Below are positions 47,317-63,073 of a DNA stretch of 64,000 nucleotides, piece after piece. The translations under genes and the position numbers were made by a program. The stretch is from the NCBI GenBank assembly GCA_016182605.1, contig JACPGE010000044.1, forward strand, positions 124,001-188,000, read 5' to 3'. Below the pieces are notes generated by a model, which did not search any database, had not been told where the DNA came from, and saw only the letters and a list, made by a program, of their open reading frames with translations. The stretch comes from Candidatus Hydrogenedentota bacterium. GTDB lineage: Bacteria; Hydrogenedentota; Hydrogenedentia; Hydrogenedentales; JAEUWI01. Every line of letters starts with the position of its first letter. Within the stretch, counting starts at the first letter, position 1.

Positions 47317-49038
47317 ATGGGCAATCGAAGTACATGGATACTGGGCGCCGCGGGACTGCTTCTGGCCCTGCTTTCTCCTTCCGTTTGCGCGGAGGACCTC
47401 TACGTCGATGTCAACGCCCCAAACTGCGGCCTGGCCGACGGTTCGGAAGAGTTTCCATTCTGCTCCATACAGGAAGGCTTGGACGCCGCCGCGCTCAGTG
47501 AAGAAGGCTCTATCAAGGTGCTTCCCGGCGTCTACCCGGAACAAGTTATCCTGCGGCCGGATATAGATATCGAAGCCGTTGAGGGGGATGACGACGGCGA
47601 TCCAGTCATTATCGAGTTCGCCCCCACCTCGATCGATTCCCCTTTTGTCGTTATGGGCGCCGGCGATGCCGGCCTGGAAGGCATTACCATCCGCGTTCCC
47701 GCAGGCGCCACGATTCCCGCCGTGCTCCTGCATATACCCGGCGTGCGCATGGAACTCGAAGAGGTCTTCTTCGACGGCGGCCTGAACCGGAACACCACCG
47801 GCATCCTGATTGCGGGAACCGGCTCCTCGCAAAGCCGCATCAAAAAATGCACCTTTACCCACCTCGAAGTCGGCGTCGAAGCCGTCGACACTTCCGTGCG
47901 TATCACGCGCAATCTCTTCACCGAACTCCTTCGTGACGCCATTTACGTGCACGCCCCGGAAAGTGGCGCCGGCCCCTTCGAAGTCCCCGAGATCGGGGTC
48001 TCAGGCACCCTCGAACTCTCCGGCTTCAACCAGTTCCGCGCGGTGGGGGGCTTTGTCGAGGACGATGACGACGACAAACAGATCATCAACCCGGGTGACG
48101 CCTTTATCCTGCGCAACACGACCGGACAAACCCTCTTCGCCCAGTTGAATGATTGGGACGTCTTCGACAGCGCCTCCATAGCAGCGCGCCTCAGCACCGA
48201 TCCGCCCTTCGCCAAATCGGCGCAAGAAAGCGCCACCGTGAACCAAGTGGAACCCTTTGTCTTCGAGCCCTTCCTCGGAAAGAGCGTTTTTCCGGGAAGC
48301 ATCTTCGTGCGCATTAAGGACCGGCACTCCAACACGCCCATAACAGGCGCTTCTCCCCGCCTCCTTCTTGCCGGACTGGACACTGGCATCAATCCCGGCT
48401 TCGACACGCGCAGCAGCCTCTATTCCTTTACCTTCCTCGCGCCCGCCACGTACACCCTCCGCGCGCAGGCCTCCGGGTTTGCCGCGCAGGATCTCAGCGT
48501 GGCCGTTATCCCTGGCGCCATTGAAGCCCGGGAGTTCGTCCTCGATGCCGATGCCATCACCATCCTGCCTCCCACCCTCACCCGCACACTTCCAGCGGGG
48601 CCATCCACCGAAACGATGCCCGTTCTAGAGGGTCTGGCCGAACCACATATGGCCGTCCATGTGTTCGTTGACGGCATTGAATTTGTTGCCGCGCAAGCCG
48701 GCGTCGCAGGGGCATTCTCCGTCATCGTCGGTCCACTTCCCCTGGGTGTCAACATCCTTGCCGCGCGCGCCGAAGATGAACTCGGCAACCAAAGCGAAAT
48801 TTCCAGTTCACTTGTATACGAAGTTCTACCTGCTGGCGAGGGTGAGGGTGAAGGTGAGGGTGAAGGGGAAGGTGAGGGTGAGGGTGAAGGGGAAGGTGAA
48901 GGTGAAGGTGAAGGGGAAGGCAAACTGGCGGGCTGTACACCCGCATCGGGCCCCCGGGAGTATCGTGCAGGCGATATCGCCGCCATGTTCTTCACCTGGG
49001 CGGCACTTTGGGCCCTATCCCGAAAGTCCCAATTTTGA
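47317..49038 (+). CDS. secreted beta-helix protein with GEGEGE linker and Cys-TM C terminus
   Basis: The 573-aa protein has a signal peptide and a right-handed beta-helix (about 25-240: DLYVDVNAPNCG, VLPGVYPEQVIL, GLEGITIRVPAG, FTHLEVGVEAVDTSV). Two beta-sandwich-like domains follow (to about 505), then an uninterrupted GE linker of about 30 residues, and a C-terminal block with GC, a TM helix (DIAAMFFTWAALWAL) and a basic end (SRKSQF). That Cys-TM-basic end resembles protein-sorting tails of the MYXO-CTERM/GlyGly-CTERM type. GAGG precedes the ATG. It may be the exported partner of the upstream outer-membrane protein. Confidence 0.75.
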   Translation: MGNRSTWILGAAGLLLALLSPSVCAEDLYVDVNAPNCGLADGSEEFPFCSIQEGLDAAALSEEGSIKVLPGVYPEQVILRPDIDIEAVEGDDDGDPVIIEFAPTSIDSPFVVMGAGDAGLEGITIRVPAGATIPAVLLHIPGVRMELEEVFFDGGLNRNTTGILIAGTGSSQSRIKKCTFTHLEVGVEAVDTSVRITRNLFTELLRDAIYVHAPESGAGPFEVPEIGVSGTLELSGFNQFRAVGGFVEDDDDDKQIINPGDAFILRNTTGQTLFAQLNDWDVFDSASIAARLSTDPPFAKSAQESATVNQVEPFVFEPFLGKSVFPGSIFVRIKDRHSNTPITGASPRLLLAGLDTGINPGFDTRSSLYSFTFLAPATYTLRAQASGFAAQDLSVAVIPGAIEAREFVLDADAITILPPTLTRTLPAGPSTETMPVLEGLAEPHMAVHVFVDGIEFVAAQAGVAGAFSVIVGPLPLGVNILAARAEDELGNQSEISSSLVYEVLPAGEGEGEGEGEGEGEGEGEGEGEGEGEGEGKLAGCTPASGPREYRAGDIAAMFFTWAALWALSRKSQF

Positions 49039-49168: not shown

Positions 49169-49346
49169 AGTCTGCCGGACTTCAGTCGATACGGCAGACA
49201 ACTTTGAGGACTTTACGCCACGTTTGCCTCCGGTTGATTCCAGAGCTTAGGAGCATTTATACTTAATCCGGCCTCGTTGACGCCCGCACTGGGGAACTGT
49301 GCCGAATTTCTTGGTCGATCTATTCCCCCCACAAGGTTTTTCTCAA

Positions 49347-50270
49347 ATGCTTTATCTACCCAAAATGCTGGCCCCGGATCTCATTCGCCCCAAGATCGTT
49401 GCCAAAGACAAGTGGGCGCTCCTCGACAAGATGGCCGACTTGATGGCCAGCAACAAGCCGCAGGCGCACGGGAAACCCCTTGATCGGCAGACCATATACG
49501 AGGCCGTGGAAAAACGGGAACTCGAACGCACCTCGGCCATCGGACAAGGATGCGCGTTGCCCCATGCGCGCATCTCAGGACTGGATCGGCCCGTGGCCTG
49601 CCTCGTTACCCTGGATCCGCCCGTTGATTTCGGCGCGGACGACCACGAGCCCGTTAGCATTGCCTGTCTGCTGCTCGTCCCCGAGGACGATCCCTCTTCC
49701 ACACTCAAGATCATGGCCGAAGTGGCCCTGCTTATGTCGGAGGACAAGAACCGGCAGTTCATGGCGTCCACCAGCGATGCCACAACCTTGCACGGCTTCC
49801 TCGACGGGCTGAGCACGGGCGTCGAAATGCCCCTGGTCGCGCGCAACATCATGCGCGGGCCTTTCTTCGCCGTCTATCCTGAAACCCCGCTCATCGAAGT
49901 GACCCGCCTGCTGCAACAGCATCTCCTCGAAGCTTGCGGTGTGCACGATCGCGAAGGCCACCTGGTTGGCGTCATCACCTGCGACAGCCTGTTTCAGTAC
50001 GGCTTTCCCGAGTTCTTCGGCCAACTCAAGAGTGTGGCCTTTATCCGGAAGTTCGACCCCTTCGAAAACTATTTCAAGGGGCTCAAGACCGCCACTGCCG
50101 GCGACGTCATGTCCACAGATTTCTCGGCGCTCCCGGAAGACGCCACGCTCCTCGAAGTGGTCTTCGAACTGGCCGTACGCAAGCACGCCAAGGTTTTCGT
50201 GGTGCGCGACGGCATTCTGACTGGAATCATCGATCGCATCACCGTTTTGAACCGTGTGCTGAATTTTTAG
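49347..50270 (+). CDS. PTS EIIA(Ntr)-like domain fused to CBS domains
   Basis: The 307-aa protein has an EIIA type-2 domain (about 1-150) with phospho-acceptor His73 in CALPHARISG, followed by two CBS domains (about 170-300: MRGPFFAVYPETPLIEVTRL, GDVMSTDFSALPEDATLLEV). No EIIB or EIIC domain is present, so this is regulatory, not sugar uptake. CBS domains bind adenosyl ligands. The gene is 9 nt before an ion transporter gene, and the pair is probably one unit. The start ATG 49347 matches the usual N terminus of EIIA domains; GTG 49299 adds 16 residues. Confidence 0.88.
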   Translation: MLYLPKMLAPDLIRPKIVAKDKWALLDKMADLMASNKPQAHGKPLDRQTIYEAVEKRELERTSAIGQGCALPHARISGLDRPVACLVTLDPPVDFGADDHEPVSIACLLLVPEDDPSSTLKIMAEVALLMSEDKNRQFMASTSDATTLHGFLDGLSTGVEMPLVARNIMRGPFFAVYPETPLIEVTRLLQQHLLEACGVHDREGHLVGVITCDSLFQYGFPEFFGQLKSVAFIRKFDPFENYFKGLKTATAGDVMSTDFSALPEDATLLEVVFELAVRKHAKVFVVRDGILTGIIDRITVLNRVLNF

Positions 50271-50279
50271 GGTCGGCCA

Positions 50280-51584
50280 ATGCTTACACTTTCCGTCGTC
50301 ATCTTCCTCGTCGTCTATGTACTTATCGCGTTCGAAGTAATCGACAAGACGGCCGCTGCACTTGCCGGCGCCTCTGCCGTCATCCTCCTCCATGCCGTTC
50401 CCTACGAGGTCGCGCTCCACAGCGTCGACATGAATGTGCTCTTCCTGCTCATCGGCATGATGATCGTCATGAGCATTCTCTCGGAGACCGGATTCCTCGA
50501 ATGGCTCGCCATTGCCATCGCCCAAAGAGCAAAGGGCAATGCCCGCGTCATCGTCCTGCAATTCCTGTTTGTTACGGCCTTCACCTCCGCCTTTCTGGAC
50601 AACGTTACCACGGTTATCCTCATTGCGCCCATCACCATTCTCATCACGCAGTTGCTCGGCGCGCCGACGGCGCCCGTCCTGATCCTCATGGCCATCTTCT
50701 CCAATATTGGCGGCACCGCCACCCTCATCGGCGATCCCCCCAACATCATTATCGGCTCCGGCAGCGGGCTCACCTTCAACGAGTTCCTGGTCAATCTCTC
50801 CCCGCCGGTCATCATCATGACCATCGTTTCCCTCGCGGTCATTAATTTCCGTTTCGGGCCGAAGCTCATTACCTCTGTGGAAGCCCGCCGGCGTGTCATG
50901 CTCGCCGAAGCGCGCCTGGCCATCCTGGATCACAGTCTCCTGCGCAAGAGCGGCTCCGTGCTCGCCATCATCCTCCTCGGCTTCTTCACCAGCCGGCTCA
51001 CCGGTTTTGAGCCCGGCATTGTGGCGCTCGGCGGCGCGGTTCTCATGATTATCGTCTGCCGCATCGATATCCACACGGCGCTCCACAAGGTGGAGTGGGC
51101 CACCATCCTGTTCTTCATCGGCCTCTTCATGCTCATCAGCGCCCTCGAACACAACCAGCTCTTCGAAATCCTGGGCGACAAACTTGTACACGCCACCCAA
51201 GGCAACCTCCTCCTCACCGTCATGGTTATCCTTTGGGTCAGCGCCTTCGCTTCCGCCATCGTGGACAACATTCCGCTTGTTATCGCCATGATGCCCCTCA
51301 TCAAGATCATGATTCCGGCCTTCGCCCTGCAAATGGGTATCGCAGACGATCCCGCGGCCATACACACCACTGTCGAAGCGCCGCTCTATTGGGCGCTTGC
51401 GCTCGGCGCCTGCCTCGGCGGCAACGGCACGCTCATCGGCGCCTCGGCCAATGTGGTGATCGCACAGATTGCCAACCGCAACAATGCGCCCATCACCTTC
51501 ATGGCCTTCACCAAAGAAGGCTTCCCACTTATGATTCTCACCGTCGCCATTGCCGCCGTCTACATGTACTTCCGGTACTTCTAG
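50280..51584 (+). CDS. ArsB/NhaD-superfamily ion transporter
   Basis: The 434-aa protein has about 11-12 TM helices and blocks characteristic of the ArsB/NhaD/SLC13-type superfamily: FLLIGMMIVMSILSETGFLE, TAFTSAFLDNVTTVILIAP, GGTATLIGDPPNIIIGSGS and a matching second half AFASAIVDNIPLVIAMMPLI, then GGNGTLIGASANVV. The DNV/DNI pairs and GDPPN motif fit Na+/H+ antiport or anion transport; arsenite is possible but no ars genes are near. The preceding EIIA-CBS protein probably controls it. A hairpin follows its stop. Confidence 0.87.
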   Translation: MLTLSVVIFLVVYVLIAFEVIDKTAAALAGASAVILLHAVPYEVALHSVDMNVLFLLIGMMIVMSILSETGFLEWLAIAIAQRAKGNARVIVLQFLFVTAFTSAFLDNVTTVILIAPITILITQLLGAPTAPVLILMAIFSNIGGTATLIGDPPNIIIGSGSGLTFNEFLVNLSPPVIIMTIVSLAVINFRFGPKLITSVEARRRVMLAEARLAILDHSLLRKSGSVLAIILLGFFTSRLTGFEPGIVALGGAVLMIIVCRIDIHTALHKVEWATILFFIGLFMLISALEHNQLFEILGDKLVHATQGNLLLTVMVILWVSAFASAIVDNIPLVIAMMPLIKIMIPAFALQMGIADDPAAIHTTVEAPLYWALALGACLGGNGTLIGASANVVIAQIANRNNAPITFMAFTKEGFPLMILTVAIAAVYMYFRYF

Positions 51585-52127: not shown

Positions 52128-53972
52128 ATGATTTCGCGTGTGCAAATCCTGATAGCCGCACTCACCATTGCAGGCATTGCGGTATTCCATCCGAGCGCCC
52201 ATGCCGCGCAGCCTTTCAAGGAGTTGGTCGGTAGCGTTGCCGTGGGCGAGGTCGCGAGCGGTCCCCTGCAGGTGCCCTACATTACATGGGGGGGCGACGC
52301 CGCCACCTTCTACGCCAATGGCGGTCTGACGACGGCGCCAGGAAGCCTCTTCCAGACGCAGGGCCTGAACTTGAAGCTCCGCGCTGGAGATGACTTTGTC
52401 CAACAGGTGCGGGACTATCTCAGCGGGAAAAGCCCCTTCTTGCGCGGCACCTTTCACATGATGGGACTCGCTTCCGAAGTCATTGGCAGCGATCCGCGCA
52501 CCAAGGGCGTGGTCATCCTGCAAATGACGTGGTCCGCGGGCGACCACATGGTGTCTCGAAACACCGTGAAAACCGTTAACGACTTGAAAGGCAAGACCAT
52601 TGCCATCCAGCAGGGCGGCCCGCATGTTGGCATGCTCGATGACATCCTGAAATCCGCGCAGTTGTCCTGGGACGACATCAAAGTCGTCTGGGCAAAAGAT
52701 CTCACCGGCTCGCCGGACAGCCCCGCGGAATTGCTCCGAAGCCGGAATGATATTGACGCCTGTTTTGTCATCACGCCAGACATGATCGGCCTTTGCGGCG
52801 GCCTGCAAAATACCGGCTCCGGCGCCGAAGGCACCGTAAAAGGCGTGCGCGTCCTCGTGTCCACGGCCGAGCTTTCCCGCTCCATCGCCGATGTCTATGT
52901 TTGCCGGAAAGATTTCTACGACAAAAACAAGGCGTTGATTACCAAGTTTGCCGCCGGTTACATGAGGGCGTGCGAAACCGTATTGGACCTCAAGAAAACC
53001 TATGAATCCAAGGGTTCACCGGAATACATTCAACTGTTGAAAATGGTCCAGGACATCTATGGGCAGCAGACCATTCCGACCCTGGAAGAAGACGCCCACG
53101 GCCTCATAGCCGATGCAACCTTTGTCGGTTATCCCGGCAACGTGGCCTTCTTCACCGGTAAAAACAATCTGGCCGGCTTCGATGCCTTTCAAACGGCTGC
53201 GCTCGACCTTGCCGTGCGCCTCGGCTACGCGAAAGTCAAAACGGGCCTCCTGCCTTCAGGATTGGATTACAACAGCCCTCTCTTTCGCAGTTACCTGACC
53301 AAGCTGGATGCCATCGGTGGAGAACGCTTCCGCGCGGAGGCCGTGGCGCAGGAAATCGAGGAGTTGAGCGCCGGCGGCGACTTGGACGACCGCACCATTC
53401 TCTCATTTACGGTCAATTTCGCTCCGAACCAGAATGAGTTCAGCGACATTCAGTACGGCGCGGAGTTTCAGCGCGTGGTGGAACTCGCCAGCAAGTATGG
53501 GAACGCCGTAATTGCCATTCGCGGCCACGCCGACCCTTCGAAAACCCTGCTGGAACTCGTGAAGTCCGGCATGGCGAAGGGTGTCCTGAAGCGCTCCGGA
53601 ACCACCGGCAACTATACCTACTCTCTCGAAGGCCGCCCACTCGACCTAAGCCAGACCCAACACATTACCGAACTCGTGGAGAAGGGCGCCTTCGACGGCG
53701 TCCCCGGCTCGAATCCCCGCGAGACCATGCAGGCAGCCCTGAACCTCTCCCTCACCCGTGCGGAAGCCGTTCGCGACAGCGTCATCACCTACGCCAATGG
53801 CAAGGACCTGCGTCTCGACAAGTCCCAGATTCAGCCGCTGGGCGTCGGAATCCGCGAGCCCTTCATTGCCAAGCCCGCGAATATGGATGAAGCACAACAG
53901 AATATGCGGGTGGAATTCCGGCTGTTGCGCGTTTTGGCAGAAGCTTCCACGCAGAGTGACTTCGATTTCTAA
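52128..53972 (+). CDS. substrate-binding protein fused to an OmpA-like domain (cluster gene 1)
   Basis: The 614-aa exported protein (signal MISRVQILIAALTIAGIAVF) has a periplasmic binding domain of the NrtA/SsuA/TauA-like type (about 35-390: PYITWGGDAATFYANGGL, VNDLKGKTIAIQQGGPHVGM). The C-terminal domain (about 420-600) is OmpA-like, with FTVNFAPNQNEFSD, IAIRGHADPS and SLTRAEAVRDSV. This would tether ligand binding to peptidoglycan. It starts the cluster, and the ATG at 52128 follows AAGAAAGGG. A vWA gene follows 31 nt later. Confidence 0.85.
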   Translation: MISRVQILIAALTIAGIAVFHPSAHAAQPFKELVGSVAVGEVASGPLQVPYITWGGDAATFYANGGLTTAPGSLFQTQGLNLKLRAGDDFVQQVRDYLSGKSPFLRGTFHMMGLASEVIGSDPRTKGVVILQMTWSAGDHMVSRNTVKTVNDLKGKTIAIQQGGPHVGMLDDILKSAQLSWDDIKVVWAKDLTGSPDSPAELLRSRNDIDACFVITPDMIGLCGGLQNTGSGAEGTVKGVRVLVSTAELSRSIADVYVCRKDFYDKNKALITKFAAGYMRACETVLDLKKTYESKGSPEYIQLLKMVQDIYGQQTIPTLEEDAHGLIADATFVGYPGNVAFFTGKNNLAGFDAFQTAALDLAVRLGYAKVKTGLLPSGLDYNSPLFRSYLTKLDAIGGERFRAEAVAQEIEELSAGGDLDDRTILSFTVNFAPNQNEFSDIQYGAEFQRVVELASKYGNAVIAIRGHADPSKTLLELVKSGMAKGVLKRSGTTGNYTYSLEGRPLDLSQTQHITELVEKGAFDGVPGSNPRETMQAALNLSLTRAEAVRDSVITYANGKDLRLDKSQIQPLGVGIREPFIAKPANMDEAQQNMRVEFRLLRVLAEASTQSDFDF

Positions 53973-54003
53973 GGCCCCACCGTTTCTCATGAAAGGCGAG
54001 CAT

Positions 54004-54945
54004 ATGAAACAGGGACTCCTCGGTCTGGTGGCCGCATGGGCACTGACATGCGCCGCCCTGCCCATGAACGCGCCGCGCGCAGAGGGCTATGCGGAACACG
54101 TGGTGATTATCCTCGATGGCTCCGGCTCCATGAGCGATCCCATCGACGATAACGGAAACAAGATGGATGCGGCCAAAAGCGCGTTGAAAGAAGTGCTGAA
54201 ACAAATTGAACCCGGCACGGAAGTCGGCTTACTCGTTTTCAGCAGCCACAGTCCGGCCGGCCCGTGGCACTATCCGCTCGGCAAACTGGAGATAGACCGG
54301 CTGATCGGCGCCATCGATCGGGTTCAAGCCGGAGGCGGGACGCCCTTGGGCGAATTCATCAAGCGCGGCGCCGATACGTTGATCGAAACACGCAAACAGC
54401 AATTCGGCTACGGCGCCTACCGCCTCCTCATCGTGACCGACGGGGAAGCCACGGACATGGACGTCATGCTGCGCTACGCCAAGGAAGTGACCAGCCGCGG
54501 GATTTCCATGGATGTGATTGGCGTGAAAATGGATCGGCAGCCCGCCCTCTCCAAGCTCGCCCGCTCTTACCGGGAAGCCAACAACCCGGAATCCCTGGCC
54601 CGCGCCATCGAAGACGTCTTCGCCGAACTCAGCCCCGATCAGCCTGGCGACACCGCCGTTGAGGACTTCGAGTTGCTCCAAGCCTTGCCCGCCGGCGCCG
54701 CGAAAGCCATGCTCGACGGGCTGACTAAGACTTCCGACGCCCCTATCGGCGCCATGGCGCCCCTTCCAGAGATCCCGACTCCAGATGCCGTACCTCGCCA
54801 CGCCTCCAATCCAACGCCATCGCAAAATGCCGGCTCGGACAATGGCATGTTCTCCATGCCAGGCGCAGGCATCTTGCTGGTTATTTTCATCGTGGTCATG
54901 GGCGTCGTCTCGGGAAATGCGAAGAAGCGGAAGCGGAGGCGCTGA
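54004..54945 (+). CDS. von Willebrand A domain protein with C-terminal TM anchor (cluster gene 2)
   Basis: The 313-aa protein has an N-terminal signal, a vWA domain (about 30-205) and a C-terminal TM helix (GILLVIFIVVMGVVSG) with a Lys/Arg-rich end. The MIDAS is complete: DGSGSMSD, Thr in GGTPLGEF and Asp in VTDGEATD. vWA domains mediate metal-dependent protein contacts. The domain lies outside the cytoplasm. GAAAGG precedes the ATG. The 54946-55063 gap contains a degenerate TTTCACCAC-type repeat. Confidence 0.87.
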   Translation: MKQGLLGLVAAWALTCAALPMNAPRAEGYAEHVVIILDGSGSMSDPIDDNGNKMDAAKSALKEVLKQIEPGTEVGLLVFSSHSPAGPWHYPLGKLEIDRLIGAIDRVQAGGGTPLGEFIKRGADTLIETRKQQFGYGAYRLLIVTDGEATDMDVMLRYAKEVTSRGISMDVIGVKMDRQPALSKLARSYREANNPESLARAIEDVFAELSPDQPGDTAVEDFELLQALPAGAAKAMLDGLTKTSDAPIGAMAPLPEIPTPDAVPRHASNPTPSQNAGSDNGMFSMPGAGILLVIFIVVMGVVSGNAKKRKRRR

Positions 54946-54993
54946 GCTCATGTGAAAGCCTGCCGGAGCACGACGCCAGCATGCATACCTTGC

Positions 54994-55014
54994 GGCGGTG
55001 AAGTATGCTCAGCG
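54994..55014. repeat. degenerate copy of the TTTCACCAC repeat arm
   Basis: GCGGTGAAGTATGCTCAGC resembles the reverse complement of the arm at 51872-51890 with two changes. A poor partner lies at 54979-54990. Confidence 0.5.
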
Positions 55015-55063
55015 CAATTGGCAGGCCGGTGTGTTGCGCAATGATTAACGGGATTGGAACTCC

Positions 55064-56644
55064 ATGAAACAGCAACAGAAAGCAGTGGGTTGCATTGCCG
55101 CGGCGGTCGTTTGGGTCCTGATCCTCTTCATTGCCGCCGGCGCCTACAAGTTTGCAATTCAGCCTTTTTTTGCCGGGGAACTGGAAAACAGCACCGGCTC
55201 GGAAAGTCCGTACGACCACGACATCACATTGGCACTGGATTCCTTCTCGGGCTACGCCGTGCTGCGCTCGCCTGCCTTCGCAGGCCAACTCAAGTCCCAC
55301 CGCATCCGCCTTAACATCCAGGACGACAAAGCCGGCTACACCGCAAGAATGAAAGCCCTGCAAGAAGGTGCAATCCAATTCGCCGCCTTCACTGTCGACT
55401 CTTACCTCAGCGCGGGGGCCGCCCTCGGTGAATATCCCGGCACCATTATTCTCATAATCGACGAAACACGCGGCGCGGACGCCATCGTCGCCAAGAAGCA
55501 AGACGTCGCCACCATTCAGGATCTGGACCATCCCGAGGCCCGCTTCGTACTCACGCCAGATTCGCCAAGCGAATTCCTCGCGCGTATCGTCCTTGCCGGC
55601 TTCAGCCTCCCCAGCTTGCCGCAAGACTGCTGGGAAGAGCTGGATGGCGCGGAGGCCGTCTTCAATCAATTGCGTGCTTCGAAGGGGGGGGAGAAGCGCG
55701 CCTACGTCTTGTGGGAGCCCTACGTTTCCAAGGCGCTCGCCGACCCTGCCGTACACATCCTCCTCGACAGCAGCAAGCTTCAAGGCTACATCGTGGATGT
55801 GCTCGTAGTGGAGCGCCGCTTCCTCGCGGCAAACCCCGCCGTGGCCGCCACCGTGATCGAAAGCTATCTGCGCACCCTCTATTCCTATCAAAGCCGCGAC
55901 GGCGCCATGCAGGACTTGCTGCTCGATGACGGAAAAAAAACCGGCGTCAAGGATCTCTCCAAAGAACAGGCCGCAAAACTTGTCGATGGCATTCGCTGGA
56001 AGAACACCGTGGAAAACTTCGGTCATTTTGGTCTGGACTCCGAGGCGCAACGCGACGGCGCCGTGCATATGGAAGACATGATCGCCAACATTCTCCGGGT
56101 CCTTCTGCAAACCGGCGCAATACAAGGCGACCCGGTCGGCAACATGACCCATACCCTCTACTACGATCAAATCCTGCGCGGTTTGCAGTCTCAAGACTTT
56201 CACCCCGCCCGGACCGCCAACGTCATACAAGGCGTGGACGGCCAGGCGCCCCAGGAATCCGTGGCCACCCAGGACGTGTTGCCGGAACTCTCCGAACCGC
56301 AATGGGCAGCCCTGGCGCCGGTGGGCGAGCTGCGAATGGAACCCATTTCCTTCGCGCGCGGCACGGCGAGGATCAACATCCAAAGCCAGCGCGATCTCGA
56401 AGAACTTTCAAAACGCCTCCAGGCCTTTCCGCGCTACTATCTGAAGATTATCGGCCATGCGCGGGCAGAAGGCGATTCGGAAGCGAATCTGCAATTGGCC
56501 ACGGAGCGCGCAAATGCCGCGATGCAGGTGCTCCTGCAATTCAACGTGGCCCCCCAGCGCATTCACACGGAGGCCCAGCCCCCGAGACTGGAGAACGGAT
56601 CAGCACAATCGGTAAGCTTCCAAGTGGGACAGCCACCTTATTGA
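55064..56644 (+). CDS. membrane-anchored substrate-binding protein with OmpA domain (cluster gene 3)
   Basis: The 526-aa protein has one N-terminal TM helix (VGCIAAAVVWVLILFIAAGA) without an obvious cleavage site, a binding domain (about 50-360: ITLALDSFSGYAVLRSPAF, YVLWEPYVSKALADPAVH), and an OmpA-like end (about 420-526: ISFARGTARINIQSQRDLEE, IIGHARAEGDSEANLQLATE). It is a paralogue in layout of cluster gene 1. Its TGA overlaps the next TTG start. Confidence 0.82.
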   Translation: MKQQQKAVGCIAAAVVWVLILFIAAGAYKFAIQPFFAGELENSTGSESPYDHDITLALDSFSGYAVLRSPAFAGQLKSHRIRLNIQDDKAGYTARMKALQEGAIQFAAFTVDSYLSAGAALGEYPGTIILIIDETRGADAIVAKKQDVATIQDLDHPEARFVLTPDSPSEFLARIVLAGFSLPSLPQDCWEELDGAEAVFNQLRASKGGEKRAYVLWEPYVSKALADPAVHILLDSSKLQGYIVDVLVVERRFLAANPAVAATVIESYLRTLYSYQSRDGAMQDLLLDDGKKTGVKDLSKEQAAKLVDGIRWKNTVENFGHFGLDSEAQRDGAVHMEDMIANILRVLLQTGAIQGDPVGNMTHTLYYDQILRGLQSQDFHPARTANVIQGVDGQAPQESVATQDVLPELSEPQWAALAPVGELRMEPISFARGTARINIQSQRDLEELSKRLQAFPRYYLKIIGHARAEGDSEANLQLATERANAAMQVLLQFNVAPQRIHTEAQPPRLENGSAQSVSFQVGQPPY

Positions 56645-57417
56645 CGGAACGGCCTGTGTTCAAACCAAATGCTGTTGACGACCAAACCTTACGAAGAAGC
56701 ATGTACCTCTCCGTGCTGGGCAGCCCATGGACTCTTCTGCCCATGCTTGCGGGGTCTACGCTCTTCGTTGCCTCATGGATTTTGGGGATTCGTCCCGATT
56801 TGGGAATGCTGGCCGGTCTCACGGGCGCCCTCGGGGCAGCGGGCATGTTCTTCACGACGCTGATTCTCCGCGGAGAATCCTTCGCGCGGCGCGCCCTCGA
56901 CGATTTTCAGGCCGACGCCCGAAACGAAAGGGAAGCCCAATTGGACCGGCTGGAGGCGCAATTGCAGGCCGATGAGGACCCCCGCACCGACGCGGCCTTG
57001 CGCGACCTCCGCTCCTTGACCGCCGCCTTCGAAGTGCTGACCCGGAATGAAGACGGCGAGGCGGGCCAGGCGCTGTTGATCAACGTGCACATGAACGTGC
57101 TGCAAATGTTTGAGCAGGCCGTGCGCTCCCTTGAACAGTCCTATGCGCTCTGGCAGACTATTCAAGATCTTTCCACGCGGGAGGCGCGCGAGCCGCTTTG
57201 GAAGAAGCGGGAGAACGTTGTCAACGAAATCCTCCTGAGCATCCGCCAACTCGGCGCGCTACTCGCTTCGTTGCAGGATAGCGGGAGCATCCCCGGCGGC
57301 CCATCGGACTTGGCGCAGGTCCGGGAGGAATTGGAACAAAGCCTCCGCGTCGCAAAACAGACCGGCGCGCGGTTGAGGGCATTCGAACAGGATTTAAGGA
57401 CGGGCGCCGGTGAATAA
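56641..57417 (+). CDS. membrane protein with coiled coil (cluster gene 4)
   Basis: The 258-aa protein has two TM helices (about 33-75: LLPMLAGSTLFVASWILGI, LAGLTGALGAAGMFFTTLIL) followed by a long charged helix region (about 80-258) rich in Glu, Gln and Arg, likely a coiled coil in the cytoplasm. I recognise no family. Start may be TTG 56641, overlapping the previous stop, or ATG 56701. The PspA-like gene follows. Confidence 0.65.
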   Translation: MTERPVFKPNAVDDQTLRRSMYLSVLGSPWTLLPMLAGSTLFVASWILGIRPDLGMLAGLTGALGAAGMFFTTLILRGESFARRALDDFQADARNEREAQLDRLEAQLQADEDPRTDAALRDLRSLTAAFEVLTRNEDGEAGQALLINVHMNVLQMFEQAVRSLEQSYALWQTIQDLSTREAREPLWKKRENVVNEILLSIRQLGALLASLQDSGSIPGGPSDLAQVREELEQSLRVAKQTGARLRAFEQDLRTGAGE

Positions 57418-57473
57418 TTTTCTTGTGCCGCTGTAAATCAGGAATGTGCACTTTAGCACGAAGGAGACAGGAC

Positions 57474-58301
57474 ATGGTCAGGGCACTCTATCGTTGGTTC
57501 AAGGCCGTTGGATACCTTATGACCGGCCAGCTTGATTCTGCCCGGCGCACGCTGGACTCCAACCCCCATGTCATGGCGGCAAAGTATGACGACGTCATAC
57601 GGGAGAAGACCGCCCGCATTCATCAGTACAAGCAGGCGGTCGCCGGCCTCATCGCCCAGCAGGAGGGCAAGCTGCAAAAGATCAAGGCCCTCACCGATGA
57701 GGTCGGCCGGCTGGAAGATCTCAAGGCGGGCGCCCTGGCAAAGGCCAAGAAGCGCGTCGAGGAATTGAAGGCCGCCGGCAAGCCCCTTGAGGCCATTCAT
57801 ACCGACGAAGACTATCTGCGCTGCCAGACGGCCTTCAAGGATTTCTCCGGCACGCTCGCGGAGAAACAGGCGCGCATTGACGAACTGGAAGAACATATCG
57901 GCGAATACAGCAAGCGCGTCGCCGAACACAAGGTCCAGCTTCAAAGCCTTATGCGGGAGATCGATCAGATCAAGGCCGAGAAGACCGATGCGGTCGCGGA
58001 TGTCATTACGGCGCGCGAAGAGAAAGAAGTGGCCGATACGCTCGCCGGAATCGCGAAGGACGGCGCCGCCGAAGAATTGCAGCGCATGCGCCAGCTTCGA
58101 AATGAACTGAAGGCCGAAGCCCGCGTCAGCAAGGAGCTGGCCGGCACCGATTCACGCGCGCAGGAAGCCGATTTCCTGGAGTACGCGCGCAAGGACCAGA
58201 GCAAGAATGAATTTGATGCCTTGATCGGCCTGGCCGCGGAGGCCGACGGGGTTAAGACCAGCGTGCCGCAAGAGAAACCCGAGAGTGCACTGCCCGAATA
58301 A
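57474..58301 (+). CDS. PspA/IM30-family protein (cluster gene 5)
   Basis: PspA proteins bind stressed inner membranes and form ESCRT-III-like assemblies. The 275-aa protein is almost entirely helical, starting LYRWFKAVGYLMTGQ and continuing with long heptad-rich coiled-coil segments (LIAQQEGKLQKIKALTDEVG, QARIDELEEHIGEYSKRVAE). It ends with a charged tail. It is longer than typical PspA (about 220 aa), and no PspF or PspBC genes are present. AAGGAGACAGGAC precedes the ATG at 57474. Confidence 0.82.
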   Translation: MVRALYRWFKAVGYLMTGQLDSARRTLDSNPHVMAAKYDDVIREKTARIHQYKQAVAGLIAQQEGKLQKIKALTDEVGRLEDLKAGALAKAKKRVEELKAAGKPLEAIHTDEDYLRCQTAFKDFSGTLAEKQARIDELEEHIGEYSKRVAEHKVQLQSLMREIDQIKAEKTDAVADVITAREEKEVADTLAGIAKDGAAEELQRMRQLRNELKAEARVSKELAGTDSRAQEADFLEYARKDQSKNEFDALIGLAAEADGVKTSVPQEKPESALPE

Positions 58302-58362
58302 GCGGAGCAGCTTCACCCAAGCGGCCCAACCAACCCGTGGTATACATGAAGGAGATCGACAG

Positions 58363-59406
58363 ATGGGAAGAATCATTATTTTCGCTGTGTGCGCGGCAGC
58401 CCTTGCGCAAACTGCATTCGCCGCGAAGCCCCCCGTATTCTCTCTGGCCTGGAGTGAATACCCCTCCTGGAGTGCCTTTGGCGTCTGCCACGAAACCGGC
58501 CTCATCAATGGCGCCGCCGGAAAACTCGGGTCCATCGAAGAGAAATGGGGCGTGGACATCGAGTTGAAGGAAGCCGAATACGACCCGTGCATCGCCATGT
58601 ATGGCGCGGGCCAGACAGACGCTGTCTGTATTACCAACATGGACGTGCTCAACGCGTCGCTTTCGCGGCCCGGTGTGGCCATTCTGGCCACGTCCACCAG
58701 TTACGGCGCCGATGCCTGCATCGTGTCCTCTGCGATCGCCGATGTAAAAGACCTGAAGGGCAAGAAGGTGCGGGGACTGGCCTTGAGTGTCTCCGAATAT
58801 TGCTTTGCCCGGAACCTGCAGATCCTGGGCGAAGACCCCGCGGAATACACCTTTGTCAACATGGATCCCGGCGCGGCAGCCCTGGCAATGCAGCAAAAGC
58901 AGGCGGACTTCGATGCCATCGTCGTGTGGAATCCCTTCGTCCTGGATACGCTCAATCAACGCAAGGATTGCCACGTGCTCTTCGATTCCTCCTCCATCCC
59001 CAACGAAATCATTGATATGGTGGTCATGTCGGAAAGCGCGCTCCAAAAGCCCAAAGGAAAAGAGTTCGCCTCTGCCGTGGCCGACGCGTTTTATGCGCTG
59101 AACAAGCGCATGGCCGACGCCACTACACGAGACGACACCTTGATCGCGCTGGGCGAAAAATTCTCCAATCTGGACCTTCAGTCTATGCGGAAAGTCGTTC
59201 AGCAAACCAAATTCTACGCCACCCCGGAAGAAGCCACAAAGCTGTTCGACAGCGCGGAACTCAAAGACACCATGACCAAAGTGGTGGACTTTTGCGTGAA
59301 AATGGAAATTGTGGCGAAGAAGCCCGTCGTCGCCTTTGGGGCCGGTGCAACGGGCAACCTGGTTTTCGATCCCGCCTATATTGCCGCAGCCGCGGCGAAA
59401 CCATAA
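58363..59406 (+). CDS. ABC substrate-binding protein, NrtA/SsuA-like (cluster gene 6)
   Basis: The 347-aa protein has a signal peptide (IIIFAVCAAALAQTAFAA) and a bilobal binding domain: FSLAWSEYPSWSAFGVCHE, YDPCIAMYGAGQTDAVCITN, ADVKDLKGKKVRGLALSVSE and ADFDAIVVWNPFVLDTL. It lacks the OmpA domain of cluster genes 1 and 3. It is next to the permease and ATPase genes, so it is the likely soluble receptor of the transporter. GAAGGAG precedes the ATG. Confidence 0.85.
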   Translation: MGRIIIFAVCAAALAQTAFAAKPPVFSLAWSEYPSWSAFGVCHETGLINGAAGKLGSIEEKWGVDIELKEAEYDPCIAMYGAGQTDAVCITNMDVLNASLSRPGVAILATSTSYGADACIVSSAIADVKDLKGKKVRGLALSVSEYCFARNLQILGEDPAEYTFVNMDPGAAALAMQQKQADFDAIVVWNPFVLDTLNQRKDCHVLFDSSSIPNEIIDMVVMSESALQKPKGKEFASAVADAFYALNKRMADATTRDDTLIALGEKFSNLDLQSMRKVVQQTKFYATPEEATKLFDSAELKDTMTKVVDFCVKMEIVAKKPVVAFGAGATGNLVFDPAYIAAAAAKP

Positions 59407-59496
59407 GCTGCCCGCATTTGTCCGGGGCGCCGGCGCCGGGGATTCTTGAGTCCCTGGCGCCTCCAAATGTAATCTGGGCAGGGAGGAATCGCACCT

Positions 59497-60300
59497 ATGA
59501 TCGGCGAACCTATCGCCAGAGTCTGGCATGTCACGCTGGGTATCGGGGCCGTGCTGTTGCTGCTCATCGCCTATACCATTTTGTCCATGCGGCAGCACCG
59601 GGAAAACCCCGATGACAAGACCATCCCGAGTTGGAGCCAACTGAGCGAAGGCGTCAAGAAATCGGTGGAGGTGAACCAGCGCTCGAACGAGCGGTGGGTT
59701 GTGGCTGACGCGCAAGCTACCAGTTTGCGCCTCTTCTGGGGGGTGTTCTGGGGTGTCTCAGGCTCGCTCCTCATCGGCATGCTCATGGGGTGTTTCGCCT
59801 TTGTCGAAGCCTTTCTCTATCCGCCCCTGGCATTCCTGGCCAAGATTCCGCCCATTGCCCTCCTCGCCGTTTTCTTCGTCCTCGCCGGCACGGGCGAAAC
59901 CATGTACGTCACCATGATCGCTTTTGGCGTCTTGCCCACCCTGGCACAAACCGTATACCTTGCCGTGAAAGAAGTGCCCGCGGAATTGCGCTACAAGGCC
60001 TACACGCTCGGCGCGTCGCACCTCGAAATCATCTGGAATGTCCTGTTGCGCCACGTGCTGCCCAAACTCATCGATGCGATTCGCCTCCAGATCGGGCCCG
60101 CTATGGTCTACCTGATCGCCGCCGAAATGGTGGTCGGCGATGTCGGCTTTGGCTACCGTATCCGCCTGCAATTCAAACTCCTCAACATGAGTGTCGTCTA
60201 TCCCTATATCGTCGTCCTTGGCGCTTTTGGCTTTGGCATCGACTACGCCCTGCGAAAGCTTCAAGCCTTCGTTTCTCCCTGGTATGCGAAAGGATACTGA
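59497..60300 (+). CDS. ABC transporter permease, NrtB/SsuC-like (cluster gene 7)
   Basis: The 267-aa permease has about six TM helices and the EAA loop that contacts the ATPase (AYTLGASHLEIIWNVLLRHV). Its N-terminal helix and cytoplasmic loop are followed by a LPTLAQTVYLAVKEVP block. It belongs to the nitrate/sulfonate/taurine-type permeases. A GGGAGG site precedes the ATG at 59497. Confidence 0.9.
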   Translation: MIGEPIARVWHVTLGIGAVLLLLIAYTILSMRQHRENPDDKTIPSWSQLSEGVKKSVEVNQRSNERWVVADAQATSLRLFWGVFWGVSGSLLIGMLMGCFAFVEAFLYPPLAFLAKIPPIALLAVFFVLAGTGETMYVTMIAFGVLPTLAQTVYLAVKEVPAELRYKAYTLGASHLEIIWNVLLRHVLPKLIDAIRLQIGPAMVYLIAAEMVVGDVGFGYRIRLQFKLLNMSVVYPYIVVLGAFGFGIDYALRKLQAFVSPWYAKGY

Positions 60301-60302
60301 CG

Positions 60303-61256
60303 ATGGACCAGCCAGCTTCGCTCGCGATCGACTGCCTCTCCCATGGTTTCGGGACGAAACCCGTGCTTCACGATGTGCAACTCCGCATTTTGCGCGGACA
60401 AATCGTGGCCTTGGTGGGTCCAAGCGGATGCGGTAAATCCACCCTGCTCCGGGCCATCGTCGGCACCCATCTTCCCCGCCAGGGCACCGTCACCGTCTTC
60501 TCCGGCAATTCCCACTTGACGGGACATGTTGTCGAAGGCCCCGGACGGGATCGCGGCATCGTGTACCAGCACTATTCCCTGTTCCCCTTTCTGACCGCGG
60601 TAGAAAACGTCGCCTTTGGCCTGATGCTCGATCAAACGAATATTTCGTACCGCCTCTTCAAGTTTCCGCGATGGTTGAAGCGCCGCGCAGAACATCTGAA
60701 ACAAGCACGGGAATTCCTCGACCGCGTCGGACTGGGCAGCGCGGCCAGCCTCTACCCCAGCGAGATGTCGGGCGGCATGTGTCAGCGCGTGGCCGTCGCG
60801 CAGGCGCTGATTATGAAACCCGCCTTGCTGCTTTTGGACGAGCCCTTTGGCGCCCTCGACGAAGCAATGCGCGAAGAGTTGCAGCGCATGCTCCTTGGGC
60901 TTTATCAAGAGAACCTCGCGGCGAGACGAAAAGGGGAACTGGAGCCGCATACCATGTTCATCGTCACGCACGAGTTGAACGAGGCCCTCTATGTCGGCGA
61001 CCGCGTCGTGGGGCTCTCCCAGTATTGGGACTGGCGCCAGGCCGGTCATGCGCAGCCACCTGGGGCAACGGTCGTTTATGATTGTTCCGCGCCCATCTTC
61101 GAACCGGACGATACGCGCGATTTCTCGTGCTTTGCCGGCCAACGGGAAGAGATTCGAGACGTGGTGTTCAATCCCGATAGCGCCTATCCCCGGGAAAAAC
61201 ATCTGCGCTACTGGCAAGAGCTGGAACAGCAGCGCGAAGCGGAACCCGCGCCATGA
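60303..61256 (+). CDS. ABC transporter ATPase (cluster gene 8)
   Basis: The 317-aa ATPase has Walker A GPSGCGKST, a Q-loop in VYQHYSLFPFL, the signature MSGGMCQR in place of LSGGQQQR, Walker B LLLLDEPFGALD and the switch His in IVTHELNEAL. A C-terminal extension of about 70 residues (GLSQYWDWRQAGHAQPPGAT onward) is longer than in NrtD/SsuB. It follows the permease by 2 nt and overlaps the AAA+ gene start by 4 nt. Confidence 0.92.
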   Translation: MDQPASLAIDCLSHGFGTKPVLHDVQLRILRGQIVALVGPSGCGKSTLLRAIVGTHLPRQGTVTVFSGNSHLTGHVVEGPGRDRGIVYQHYSLFPFLTAVENVAFGLMLDQTNISYRLFKFPRWLKRRAEHLKQAREFLDRVGLGSAASLYPSEMSGGMCQRVAVAQALIMKPALLLLDEPFGALDEAMREELQRMLLGLYQENLAARRKGELEPHTMFIVTHELNEALYVGDRVVGLSQYWDWRQAGHAQPPGATVVYDCSAPIFEPDDTRDFSCFAGQREEIRDVVFNPDSAYPREKHLRYWQELEQQREAEPAP

Positions 61257-63073
61257 CCGCGAAAGCGCAGGAGTTCATGAAGCAAGCCGGGCGCATGTTG
61301 AACGCAGGCCAGGCGCGTACCCTCCTCTTCTCAGGAAACATGTACGATATCTTCCGGCATTCGGATGAAAAGGGAGATGCCTACCACACCCTCGCCGACT
61401 TCATCGTTCAACAGTGGCGGGACTCCGGGCATACCCTCGTGATCTATGAGATCAACGGTCCCGTGCGCTTCATCGACTCCAAAGAAAAGGAACTCGCGCG
61501 CGCGGCCTGGCTTCAATGGCGCACCGGCTATGACGAGCACGATCTTGCCATTTCGAAGATGTTGCAGCCGCGCCAAGTGAAGGAGGCCACCGAGTCGTAT
61601 CTCAAAGACTTCGACGATCACCTGCTCGGCGCCGTGGGGAACCCAACCGTCGCCCTGGAATTTTTGCGCCAGCTTTGCCTCTGTTCGCGGTCGTCCACGC
61701 CCGGCGGACCCCTCTTCGGTCGGAAACTGCTCGTCCTTATTGAAGCGGCCGACCTCATCTTGCCCCTGGGCGACATCGCCACCCTCTCCGACAGCGACCG
61801 CCACCGCGTTTGCGTATGCCACGATTGGTTCTCCGACCCAGGCTTCGTTTCGGGCAACGACTCGGTCATCCTGCTCACCGAGTCCCGAAGCATGCTCAAC
61901 GCGCGCGTCGCGCAGTTGCCCCACGTCTTGGAGGTCGCGATCCCCGCGCCAGACAGCGCCGCACGACTCCACTTTTTACAGTGGTTCAAGAACCGGCCAC
62001 AGGCAAAGGTGAAACTGGAACATTGGAGCACGGAGGAAGCGCTCGCGGAGGCAACCGCCGGATTGACCCTGCAGGCCCTGCAGCAACTGCTGAAAGGGGC
62101 GGCGCATTCAGGCGCGAAACTCGATCGGGAACTGGTGATCAAGAAGGTGGAGGAACACATTTGCAGCCAGCTCTCAGAGGACATGATCGAGTTCAAGAAA
62201 CCCCAGCACCATTTGGAAGACACCGTGGGGTTCACGACGCTCAAGAAATTCCTCCGCGAGGAATTCATACCGCGATTGCGGGCGCCGGAAGACTACGCCT
62301 TGCCTGGCGCCGCCGTCTGCGGGCCTATCGGCGGCGGAAAAACCTTCATCTTTGAGGCCGTCGCCGCGGAACTCGACATGGTGGTCCTCGTCCTGAAAAA
62401 CATCCGCAGCCAATGGTTCGGCCAGACCGATGTGCTTTTCGAGCGGCTGCGCCGCGTCCTCGCCGCCCTGTCGAAAGTGCTCATCTTTGTCGACGAGGCC
62501 GACACCCAGTTCGGCGGTATCGGCCCAGACACCCACGAGACGGAACGGCGGCTTACAGGAAAGATTCAGGCCATGATGTCCGACCCGCAACTGCGCGGAC
62601 GGGTCATCTGGCTCCTTATGACAGCCCGCATCCATCATCTTTCCCCAGATATCCGCCGTCCGGGACGCGTGGGCGATCTCATCATTCCCGTGCTCGATCC
62701 AGAAGGCGCGGATCGGCTGGAGTTTATCCAATGGATGGTGAAGCCGGTGCTGGAAGCCCCGCTGGATGATAAGCAACAGGCCGAATTGGACCGGTTGACT
62801 CAGAAGTTCTCGTCCGCAAGTTTTGCCGCCATCCGGTCGGAACTCAAGGCCCACAAGAGCATCGGCGGCGGCCCGCTCCCCTTCGAACGCGTCCGCGCAA
62901 TCATGCACGACCATATCCCACCGGCCATAGAAGGCACCCGCCGCTATCAGACCCTCCAGGCTCTCGTGAACTGCACACGCCGGAGTCTTCTGCCCAATCC
63001 GGCCGTGAGCGACGAAGAGCGGAAAGAATGGCACGCCGAATTGGCACGCCTGGAATCCGAGGGCATCCGCTGA
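61253..63073 (+). CDS. tandem AAA+ ATPase with degenerate first domain (cluster gene 9)
   Basis: The 606-aa protein has an N-terminal half (about 15-250) that looks like a degenerate AAA-type domain without Walker A (LLVLIEAADLILPLGDIATL, VILLTESRSML). The C-terminal half is an active classical AAA domain: Walker A GPIGGGKT (357-364), Walker B KVLIFVDEAD (about 406-415), and an Arg finger in DIRRPGRV. The architecture resembles Ycf46-like ATPases. It may remodel PspA or ABC-complex partners. The ATG at 61253 overlaps the ATPase stop (ATGA). Confidence 0.88.
   Translation: MTAKAQEFMKQAGRMLNAGQARTLLFSGNMYDIFRHSDEKGDAYHTLADFIVQQWRDSGHTLVIYEINGPVRFIDSKEKELARAAWLQWRTGYDEHDLAISKMLQPRQVKEATESYLKDFDDHLLGAVGNPTVALEFLRQLCLCSRSSTPGGPLFGRKLLVLIEAADLILPLGDIATLSDSDRHRVCVCHDWFSDPGFVSGNDSVILLTESRSMLNARVAQLPHVLEVAIPAPDSAARLHFLQWFKNRPQAKVKLEHWSTEEALAEATAGLTLQALQQLLKGAAHSGAKLDRELVIKKVEEHICSQLSEDMIEFKKPQHHLEDTVGFTTLKKFLREEFIPRLRAPEDYALPGAAVCGPIGGGKTFIFEAVAAELDMVVLVLKNIRSQWFGQTDVLFERLRRVLAALSKVLIFVDEADTQFGGIGPDTHETERRLTGKIQAMMSDPQLRGRVIWLLMTARIHHLSPDIRRPGRVGDLIIPVLDPEGADRLEFIQWMVKPVLEAPLDDKQQAELDRLTQKFSSASFAAIRSELKAHKSIGGGPLPFERVRAIMHDHIPPAIEGTRRYQTLQALVNCTRRSLLPNPAVSDEERKEWHAELARLESEGIR

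What the first reader, a model, noticed from the sequence alone, without database searches (positions are those of the whole stretch)
52128..56644. Substrate-binding domains fused to OmpA peptidoglycan-binding domains, twice
Cluster genes 1 and 3 each pair a NrtA/SsuA-like binding domain with a C-terminal OmpA-like domain. Binding proteins are normally free or lipid-anchored. A wall-tethered receptor suggests sensing or delivery to a transporter at fixed sites. One copy has a cleavable signal, the other an uncleaved TM helix.
Basis: seen in the sequence. Interest (0 to 1): 0.55.

Follow-up and report, generated by a model that had tools for sequence, protein, structure and literature searches.

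The report
Wall-binding receptor pair beside membrane-remodelling operon
Two proteins here really do join a small-molecule receptor to an OmpA-type cell-wall domain, and they belong to a conserved, already noted but untested operon; one of the two keeps the residues needed to grip the cell wall, while the other has lost a key one in every relative examined.

Summary
Gene 1 (52128-53972) and gene 3 (55064-56644) each carry a TauA/SsuA-fold binding domain and a C-terminal OmpA-like domain. Its OmpA domain, split by an insert of about 60 residues, keeps the peptidoglycan-binding Asp and Arg in every informative row (48 of 48). Gene 3's family keeps the Arg (75 of 75) and never has the Asp (0 of 75). 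Gene 3 is also held in the inner membrane by an N-terminal helix. The genes belong to a nine-gene operon: SBP-OmpA, VWA, SBP-OmpA, membrane/coiled-coil protein, PspA-like, free SBP, permease, ABC ATPase, AAA+ ATPase. I found it under eleven phylum labels, and a version on Vibrio plasmids has TelA in the place of PspA. Ravi et al. 2024 (PMC11237479) already described the PspA/AAA+/ABC/PBPB-OmpA operon and proposed that OmpA binds wall and PBPB binds solute. So this is a member of a known, untested kind. Apparently new are the strict two-copy asymmetry and the PspA/TelA exchange. Most likely it is a wall- and membrane-anchored importer coupled to membrane remodelling; that mechanism is inferred.

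The parts
52128..53972 (+). gene 1: secreted substrate-binding/OmpA fusion, 614 aa
52257..53276 (+). gene 1 substrate-binding domain (residues about 44-383), TauA/SsuA/NrtA fold
   Evidence: VIA-align: TauA 6ssy Z 28.3, rmsd 2.9, 289 aligned, model residues 45-381
53388..53537 (+). gene 1 OmpA-like domain, first half (residues 421-470), with Asp469 at 53532-53534
53538..53711 (+). gene 1 insert inside the OmpA-like domain (residues about 471-528)
   Evidence: Asp-to-Arg spacing 71-78 residues in 60 rows and 31 in two Vibrio rows, against 15-16 in gene 3 relatives
53712..53933 (+). gene 1 OmpA-like domain, second half (residues 529-602), with Arg544 at 53757-53759 and the NxRVEF motif
54004..54945 (+). 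gene 2: von Willebrand A domain protein with N-terminal signal and C-terminal TM helix (by eye); MIDAS residues D-x-S-x-S, T, D invariant in 52 of 52 rows
   Evidence: Pfam VWA 2.9e-13; start codon; MIDAS count
55064..56644 (+). gene 3: membrane-anchored substrate-binding/OmpA fusion, 526 aa
55211..56182 (+). gene 3 substrate-binding domain (residues about 50-373)
   Evidence: TauA 6ssy Z 27.3, rmsd 3.3, 289 aligned
56309..56578 (+). gene 3 OmpA-like domain (residues about 416-505): Arg467 in place of the Asp (56462-56464), Arg482 kept (56507-56509)
   Evidence: PF00691 1.4e-12
56641..57417 (+). gene 4: N-terminal hydrophobic segment(s) followed by a charged, probably coiled-coil region; start uncertain (TTG 56641, GTG 56656 or ATG 56701)
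   Evidence: no Pfam family; conserved family A5; sequence
57474..58301 (+). gene 5: PspA/IM30-like protein
   Evidence: PF04012 5.3e-6, below Pfam cut-off; family profile hits Vipp1/PspA structures at 1.2e-4 to 2.2e-4
58363..59406 (+). gene 6: free substrate-binding protein
   Evidence: TIGR03427 1.8e-49, 168.7 bits against a cut-off of 333.9
59497..60300 (+). gene 7: ABC permease
   Evidence: PF00528 4.4e-16
60303..61256 (+). gene 8: ABC ATPase
   Evidence: PF00005 2.6e-31; start codon
61253..63073 (+). gene 9: AAA+ ATPase with one detectable AAA domain at the C-terminal end
   Evidence: PF00004 2.9e-14 at residues 355-474; Walker A/B conserved

Best explanation
Genes 1-9 encode one envelope machine: an ABC importer of the TauA/SsuA/NrtA class whose receptors are held at fixed places and which is coupled to a cytoplasmic PspA-like/AAA+ membrane-remodelling pair. 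Gene 1 is secreted and docks on peptidoglycan through its OmpA domain (Asp469/Arg544). Gene 3 is fixed in the inner membrane by its N-terminal helix, and its Asp-less OmpA domain binds something other than ordinary diaminopimelate, most likely a partner protein such as gene 1 or the VWA protein. Gene 6 is the free receptor. All three keep strongly conserved, different binding domains, and one permease/ATPase serves them. Ligand or wall/membrane spacing sensed by genes 1-3 would be passed on through the VWA protein and gene 4 to the PspA-like protein and the AAA+ ATPase. Shown: fusions, domain folds, residue states, anchor type, gene order, co-occurrence. Inferred: peptidoglycan binding by gene 1, gene 3's partner, the ligand, and the coupling.
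For: Operon order is shared by 78 loci under eleven phylum labels. All nine genes lie together in 17 of 78 loci plus the window, many loci being cut by contig ends. Where the operon is split, all 12 whole genomes searched still carry gene 1 and the AAA+ gene, and 11 carry a close permease. Gene 1 keeps Asp and Arg in 48 of 48 informative rows; gene 3 has Asp in 0 of 75 and Arg in 75 of 75. Gene 3 has an N-terminal membrane helix in 77 of 78 rows examined. Both binding domains are TauA-like in the models and hold many invariant residues (78, 43 and 53 positions at 97% or more for genes 1, 3 and 6). D271 and R286 of A. baumannii OmpA are reported as critical for diaminopimelate binding (PMC6572160, passages).
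Against: No ligand, binding or interaction was tested. One Poribacteria genome (L031) has genes 1-5 and 9 but only a weak permease match (26% identity, E 1.3e-16), so the importer may be dispensable. Vibrio plasmids have TelA and no AAA+ gene in the annotated stretch, so the PspA/AAA+ coupling is not universal. The insert in gene 1's OmpA domain could disturb wall binding. Two of 11 other OmpA proteins from related genomes also have Ser at the Asp position, so loss of Asp alone does not prove loss of wall binding.
Confidence: 0.38

Rival explanations
1. Sensor, not delivery: the anchored binding domains of genes 1 and 3 report a ligand or the wall-membrane distance and switch the cytoplasmic module (PspA/AAA+ or TelA); the linked transporter answers or clears the signal.
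For: The cytoplasmic partner is a stress protein in both versions, PspA-like or TelA (PF05816 2.9e-49). The L031 locus lacks the importer genes. Binding domains of this class serve as regulatory domains in NrtC/CmpC, which rank among the structural neighbours (9u9z_C Z 25.3, rmsd 3.0, 304 aligned).
Against: A close permease is present in 11 of 12 whole genomes searched, and free SBP, permease and ATPase stay in the operon in most loci with enough sequence (permease 38 of 49).
Confidence: 0.3
2. One reading: both fusions are wall-tethered receptors that raise local ligand concentration for a transporter at fixed sites.
For: Both have an SBP and an OmpA fold; an ABC importer is adjacent.
Against: Gene 3's family lacks the Asp in 75 of 75 informative rows and is membrane-anchored.
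Confidence: 0.15
3. Scaffold only: the SBP domains no longer bind a ligand and serve as structural spacers or protein-docking parts in an envelope complex.
For: Neither fusion reaches the cut-off of a named SBP equivalog or subfamily (TIGR01728: gene 1 32.5 and gene 3 26 bits against 163.5). In gene 3 the SBP domain has no larger share of invariant positions (43 of 324) than the OmpA domain (17 of 90).
Against: The SBP domains hold many invariant positions across phyla, 78 of 340 in gene 1 and 43 of 324 in gene 3, more than a mere spacer would be expected to need (inference).
Confidence: 0.12

Closest known systems
PspA/Snf7-AAA+-ABC-PBPB/OmpA operons (Ravi et al. 2024, PMC11237479, section 18 read)
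   Same: [quoted passage not shown] same proposed roles for the two domains
   Different: The section describes 'a' fusion protein; here two distinct fusions occur with opposite Asp states, plus a VWA gene. TelA and VWA are not mentioned in its main text (supplements not available to me)
RefSeq 'phosphate ABC transporter substrate-binding/OmpA family protein' (Vibrio plasmids pIFO15642, pSEA1)
   Same: 28-29% identical over 83-86% of gene 3; the gene 1, VWA, gene 3 order; free SBP, permease and ATPase nearby
   Different: TelA in the PspA position, no AAA+ gene in the annotated stretch, shorter insert in gene 1's OmpA domain
TauA/SsuA/NrtA substrate-binding proteins
   Same: Fold
   Different: Normally free or lipid-anchored (general knowledge); here fused to OmpA and below the family cut-offs
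OmpA/Pal/YiaD peptidoglycan-binding domain
   Same: Fold; gene 1 keeps Asp, Arg and the NxRVEF motif
   Different: Gene 1 has an insert between Asp and Arg; gene 3 lacks the Asp

Membership tests
PspA-AAA+-ABC-PBPB/OmpA operon of Ravi et al. 2024 | PBPB-OmpA fusion protein | tested here: met
PspA-AAA+-ABC-PBPB/OmpA operon of Ravi et al. 2024 | ABC ATPase and permease in the operon | tested here: met
PspA-AAA+-ABC-PBPB/OmpA operon of Ravi et al. 2024 | PspA homologue | tested here: met
   PF04012 5.3e-6 but below the curated cut-off; family profile hits Vipp1/PspA structures first at 1.2e-4, with unrelated coiled coils close behind
PspA-AAA+-ABC-PBPB/OmpA operon of Ravi et al. 2024 | AAA+ protein with two AAA domains, N-terminal one inactive | tested here: inconclusive
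   C-terminal AAA with Walker A/B found; no family detected in the N-terminal half
PspA-AAA+-ABC-PBPB/OmpA operon of Ravi et al. 2024 | Snf7 homologue with a TM segment | tested here: inconclusive
   gene 4 has hydrophobic segment(s) and a helical-looking tail, but no Pfam family and no informative PDB match
OmpA-type peptidoglycan-binding domain | gene 1: Asp and Arg that bind diaminopimelate | tested here: met
   48 of 48 informative rows, one row gapped; all 14 further rows
OmpA-type peptidoglycan-binding domain | gene 3: Asp that binds diaminopimelate | tested here: not met
   0 of 75 informative rows, four rows gapped; two Vibrio copies have Ser
OmpA-type peptidoglycan-binding domain | gene 3: Arg that binds diaminopimelate | tested here: met
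   75 of 75 informative rows
OmpA-type peptidoglycan-binding domain | actual binding to peptidoglycan | not testable with these tools
   needs a pull-down or calorimetry
SsuA family (TIGR01728) | score above the curated cut-off of 163.5 bits | tested here: not met
   gene 1 32.5, gene 3 26, gene 6 65.8 bits
putative urea ABC SBP (TIGR03427) | score above the curated cut-off of 333.9 bits | tested here: not met
   gene 6 168.7 bits, gene 3 36.6 bits

The most novel reading that the evidence does not exclude
Genes 1 and 3 form a matched two-point gauge across the periplasm. One receptor is gripped by the wall through a complete OmpA site. The other is fixed in the inner membrane, with an OmpA domain that gave up the diaminopimelate Asp in its common ancestor in order to dock on a protein partner. 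Ligand occupancy or wall-membrane spacing read by the pair controls an ESCRT-III-like PspA/AAA+ machine or, exchangeably, TelA.
Probability: 0.14. Interest if true: 0.72.

Novelty: new member of a known kind. Interest (0 to 1): 0.4.

Why it matters
PspA and TelA are widespread membrane-stress proteins whose inputs are poorly understood. This operon joins them, across distant phyla, to wall-bound and membrane-bound receptors and an importer. The fixed difference between the two OmpA domains gives a simple binding test of which part holds the wall. The Vibrio plasmid version puts the system into cultivable bacteria.

Tried and rejected
Viral contigs: no relative of gene 1 (1 of 8 scans), so it is not a phage trait as far as tested. 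Literature: of the word searches, brought up Ravi et al. 2024 as the only relevant paper on the fusion; others (SBP, OmpA, PspA, VWA, AAA together; TelA/PspA/OmpA/VWA together; the RefSeq product names together; an Asp-less OmpA/SBP combination) gave nothing relevant in their listings. These cover open-licence PMC papers only.

Duplication of one ancestral fusion against two independent fusions: profile comparison aligned only the SBP parts (probability 83), so this stays open. VIA-align rows covered mainly the SBP parts of both models, so the OmpA assignment rests on sequence profiles, secondary structure and residues, not on those searches. Gene 4 as a Snf7 relative could not be shown. The gene 3 tree (quick method, long branches; 77 rows, loci rows under 450 aa left out) did not place the window with the other Hydrogenedentota rows, nor exclude it; I draw no transfer claim from it.

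Considered and dropped: that the OmpA part of gene 1 is a chance match (rejected, because both halves match independently and Asp, Arg and the NxRVEF motif are invariant or nearly so); that gene 3's Asp loss is local to this genome (rejected).
Full report
What is there. The window holds a run of nine same-strand genes, 52128-63073. Gene 1 (614 aa) has a cleavable-type signal, a binding domain with the TauA/SsuA/NrtA fold (TauA 6ssy Z 28.3, rmsd 2.9, 289 aligned) and a C-terminal OmpA-like domain. Pfam misses that last domain, most likely because an insert splits it: the spacing from Asp to Arg is 71-78 residues in 60 rows and 31 in two Vibrio rows, against 15-16 in gene 3 relatives. The family profile still matches solved OmpA domains on both sides of the insert (3td3 and 5wtp), and hhalign against other OmpA proteins aligns both halves separately (probabilities 78 and 33). 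Gene 3 (526 aa) has an N-terminal membrane helix, a TauA-like domain (Z 27.3, rmsd 3.3, 289 aligned) and a clear OmpA domain (PF00691 1.4e-12).

It asked whether the OmpA parts lack the Asp and Arg needed for peptidoglycan binding. D271 and R286 of Acinetobacter OmpA are the reference pair (PMC6572160, passages seen). I aligned the relatives found near gene 3 in the named genome collection. Gene 1: Asp in 48 of 48 and Arg in 48 of 48 rows with a letter (49 rows, window included; one fragment gapped; one locus, L068, appears as two fragments). Fourteen further rows all keep both: six repeat genomes already counted, six are new genomes, two are Vibrio plasmids. Gene 3: Asp in 0 of 75 rows with a letter (79 rows, window included, four truncated); the residue is Arg 38, Ser 31, Ala 3, Gly 2, Ile 1; Arg at the second position in 75 of 75. 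The two Vibrio copies also have Ser and Arg. So the two OmpA domains differ in a fixed way in Pseudomonadota as well as in Planctomycetota and Verrucomicrobiota, which suggests that the loss in gene 3 is old. As a control, 9 of 11 other OmpA-domain proteins from related genomes, fetched as hits of gene 3 itself, have the Asp and two have Ser. Loss of the Asp is therefore unusual but not unique, and it does not by itself prove loss of wall binding.

Conservation. One scan of the named genome collection with four gene 3 sequences found 78 loci. They carry eleven phylum labels taken from the submitters' titles, nearly all metagenome bins: Planctomycetota, Verrucomicrobiota, Hydrogenedentota, Sumerlaeota, Lentisphaerota, Poribacteria, Omnitrophota, Acidobacteriota, Myxococcota, Thermodesulfobacteriota and Pseudomonadota. 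The order 1-2-3-4-5-6-7-8-9 recurs, with 9 moved to the front in some Planctomycetota. Among loci with enough sequence, gene 4 follows gene 3 in 68 of 69; the VWA gene precedes it in 50 of 73; gene 1 lies upstream in 42 of 61; the PspA-like gene follows in 50 of 63; the permease in 38 of 49; the AAA+ gene in 18 of 45. The misses are partly split operons. In 12 genomes searched whole, chosen partly because their loci were incomplete, gene 1 and the AAA+ gene were found in 12 of 12. A permease match was found in 12 of 12, but the one in the Poribacteria genome is weak (26% identity). The system is sporadic: gene 3 in 4 of 68 genomes of the window's phylum, the window's own included, and gene 1 in 6 of 148 genomes drawn from one planctomycete class, the centre genome included.

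A second version. Protein searches of plasmids found gene 3 relatives in six Vibrio plasmids over 83-86% of its length, named by RefSeq 'phosphate ABC transporter substrate-binding/OmpA family protein' (four further records match only the SBP part), and gene 1 relatives over 91-94% in the same six (a seventh matches 69%). In the two stretches read, the order is ABC ATPase, gene 1, VWA, gene 3, gene 4-like, TelA, free SBP, permease. TelA is confirmed by Pfam (PF05816 2.9e-49), and no AAA+ gene is annotated there. The constant core is therefore the two fusions, VWA, gene 4 and the ABC importer; the cytoplasmic partner is either PspA-like plus AAA+, or TelA. That the gene 4-like protein is the same family is judged from position and size, as no family model matched it.

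What it most likely does. The importer genes, the free SBP and two anchored SBPs point to capture of a small, probably anionic solute, going by the TauA/SsuA/NrtA fold (inference). Gene 1 should sit on peptidoglycan and gene 3 in the inner membrane. The VWA protein keeps all metal-site residues (52 of 52 rows), as expected of a binding adaptor. Inside, the PspA-like protein and an AAA+ ATPase with intact Walker motifs are the usual parts of membrane remodelling. How the outside talks to the inside is not known. Delivery and sensing both fit; I put delivery with coupling slightly ahead because the importer stays with the fusions.

Prior work and novelty. I did not find in that paper's main text the terms VWA, von Willebrand or TelA, and the section read draws no difference between two fusions; its supplements were not open to me. 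The new content is modest: two fusions, not one; a fixed Asp difference; different anchors; a PspA/TelA exchange; and a wide distribution.

Limits. Phylum labels are the submitters'. Residue counts are of sequences, not independent events. Models are predictions without ligands. No binding, transport or interaction has been tested.

Noticed in passing
L108:16197-17348 and L109:16193-17344: In Vibrio plasmids the operon carries TelA (toxic anion resistance) in the position of the PspA-like gene, and no AAA+ gene is annotated nearby.
   Followed up: partly
L031:7099-15632: A Poribacteria locus has genes 1-5 and 9 with no free SBP, permease or ATPase; the best permease in that genome is only 26% identical.
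   Followed up: partly
L033:7002-12401 and L034:6906-12534: In Lentisphaerota genes 1-4 stand alone, and the permease and AAA+ genes lie together on another contig.
   Followed up: partly
L065 (genome G078, C1:755812-757218): The AAA+ gene of this Pirellulaceae genome has an in-frame stop and is broken into several frames, while genes 1-6 look intact.
   Followed up: no
L008 and L014: Two other OmpA-domain proteins from genomes of the window's order also have Ser at the peptidoglycan-binding Asp position.
   Followed up: no
47317-49038: ORF ending in a long Gly-Glu repeat (GEGEGE...) followed by a C-terminal hydrophobic stretch, possibly a cell-surface protein linker (by eye).
   Followed up: no
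49299-51584: Two genes just upstream look by eye like a PTS-IIA/CBS protein and an ArsB/citrate-type membrane transporter; not checked against families, and not part of the nine-gene set followed here.
   Followed up: no
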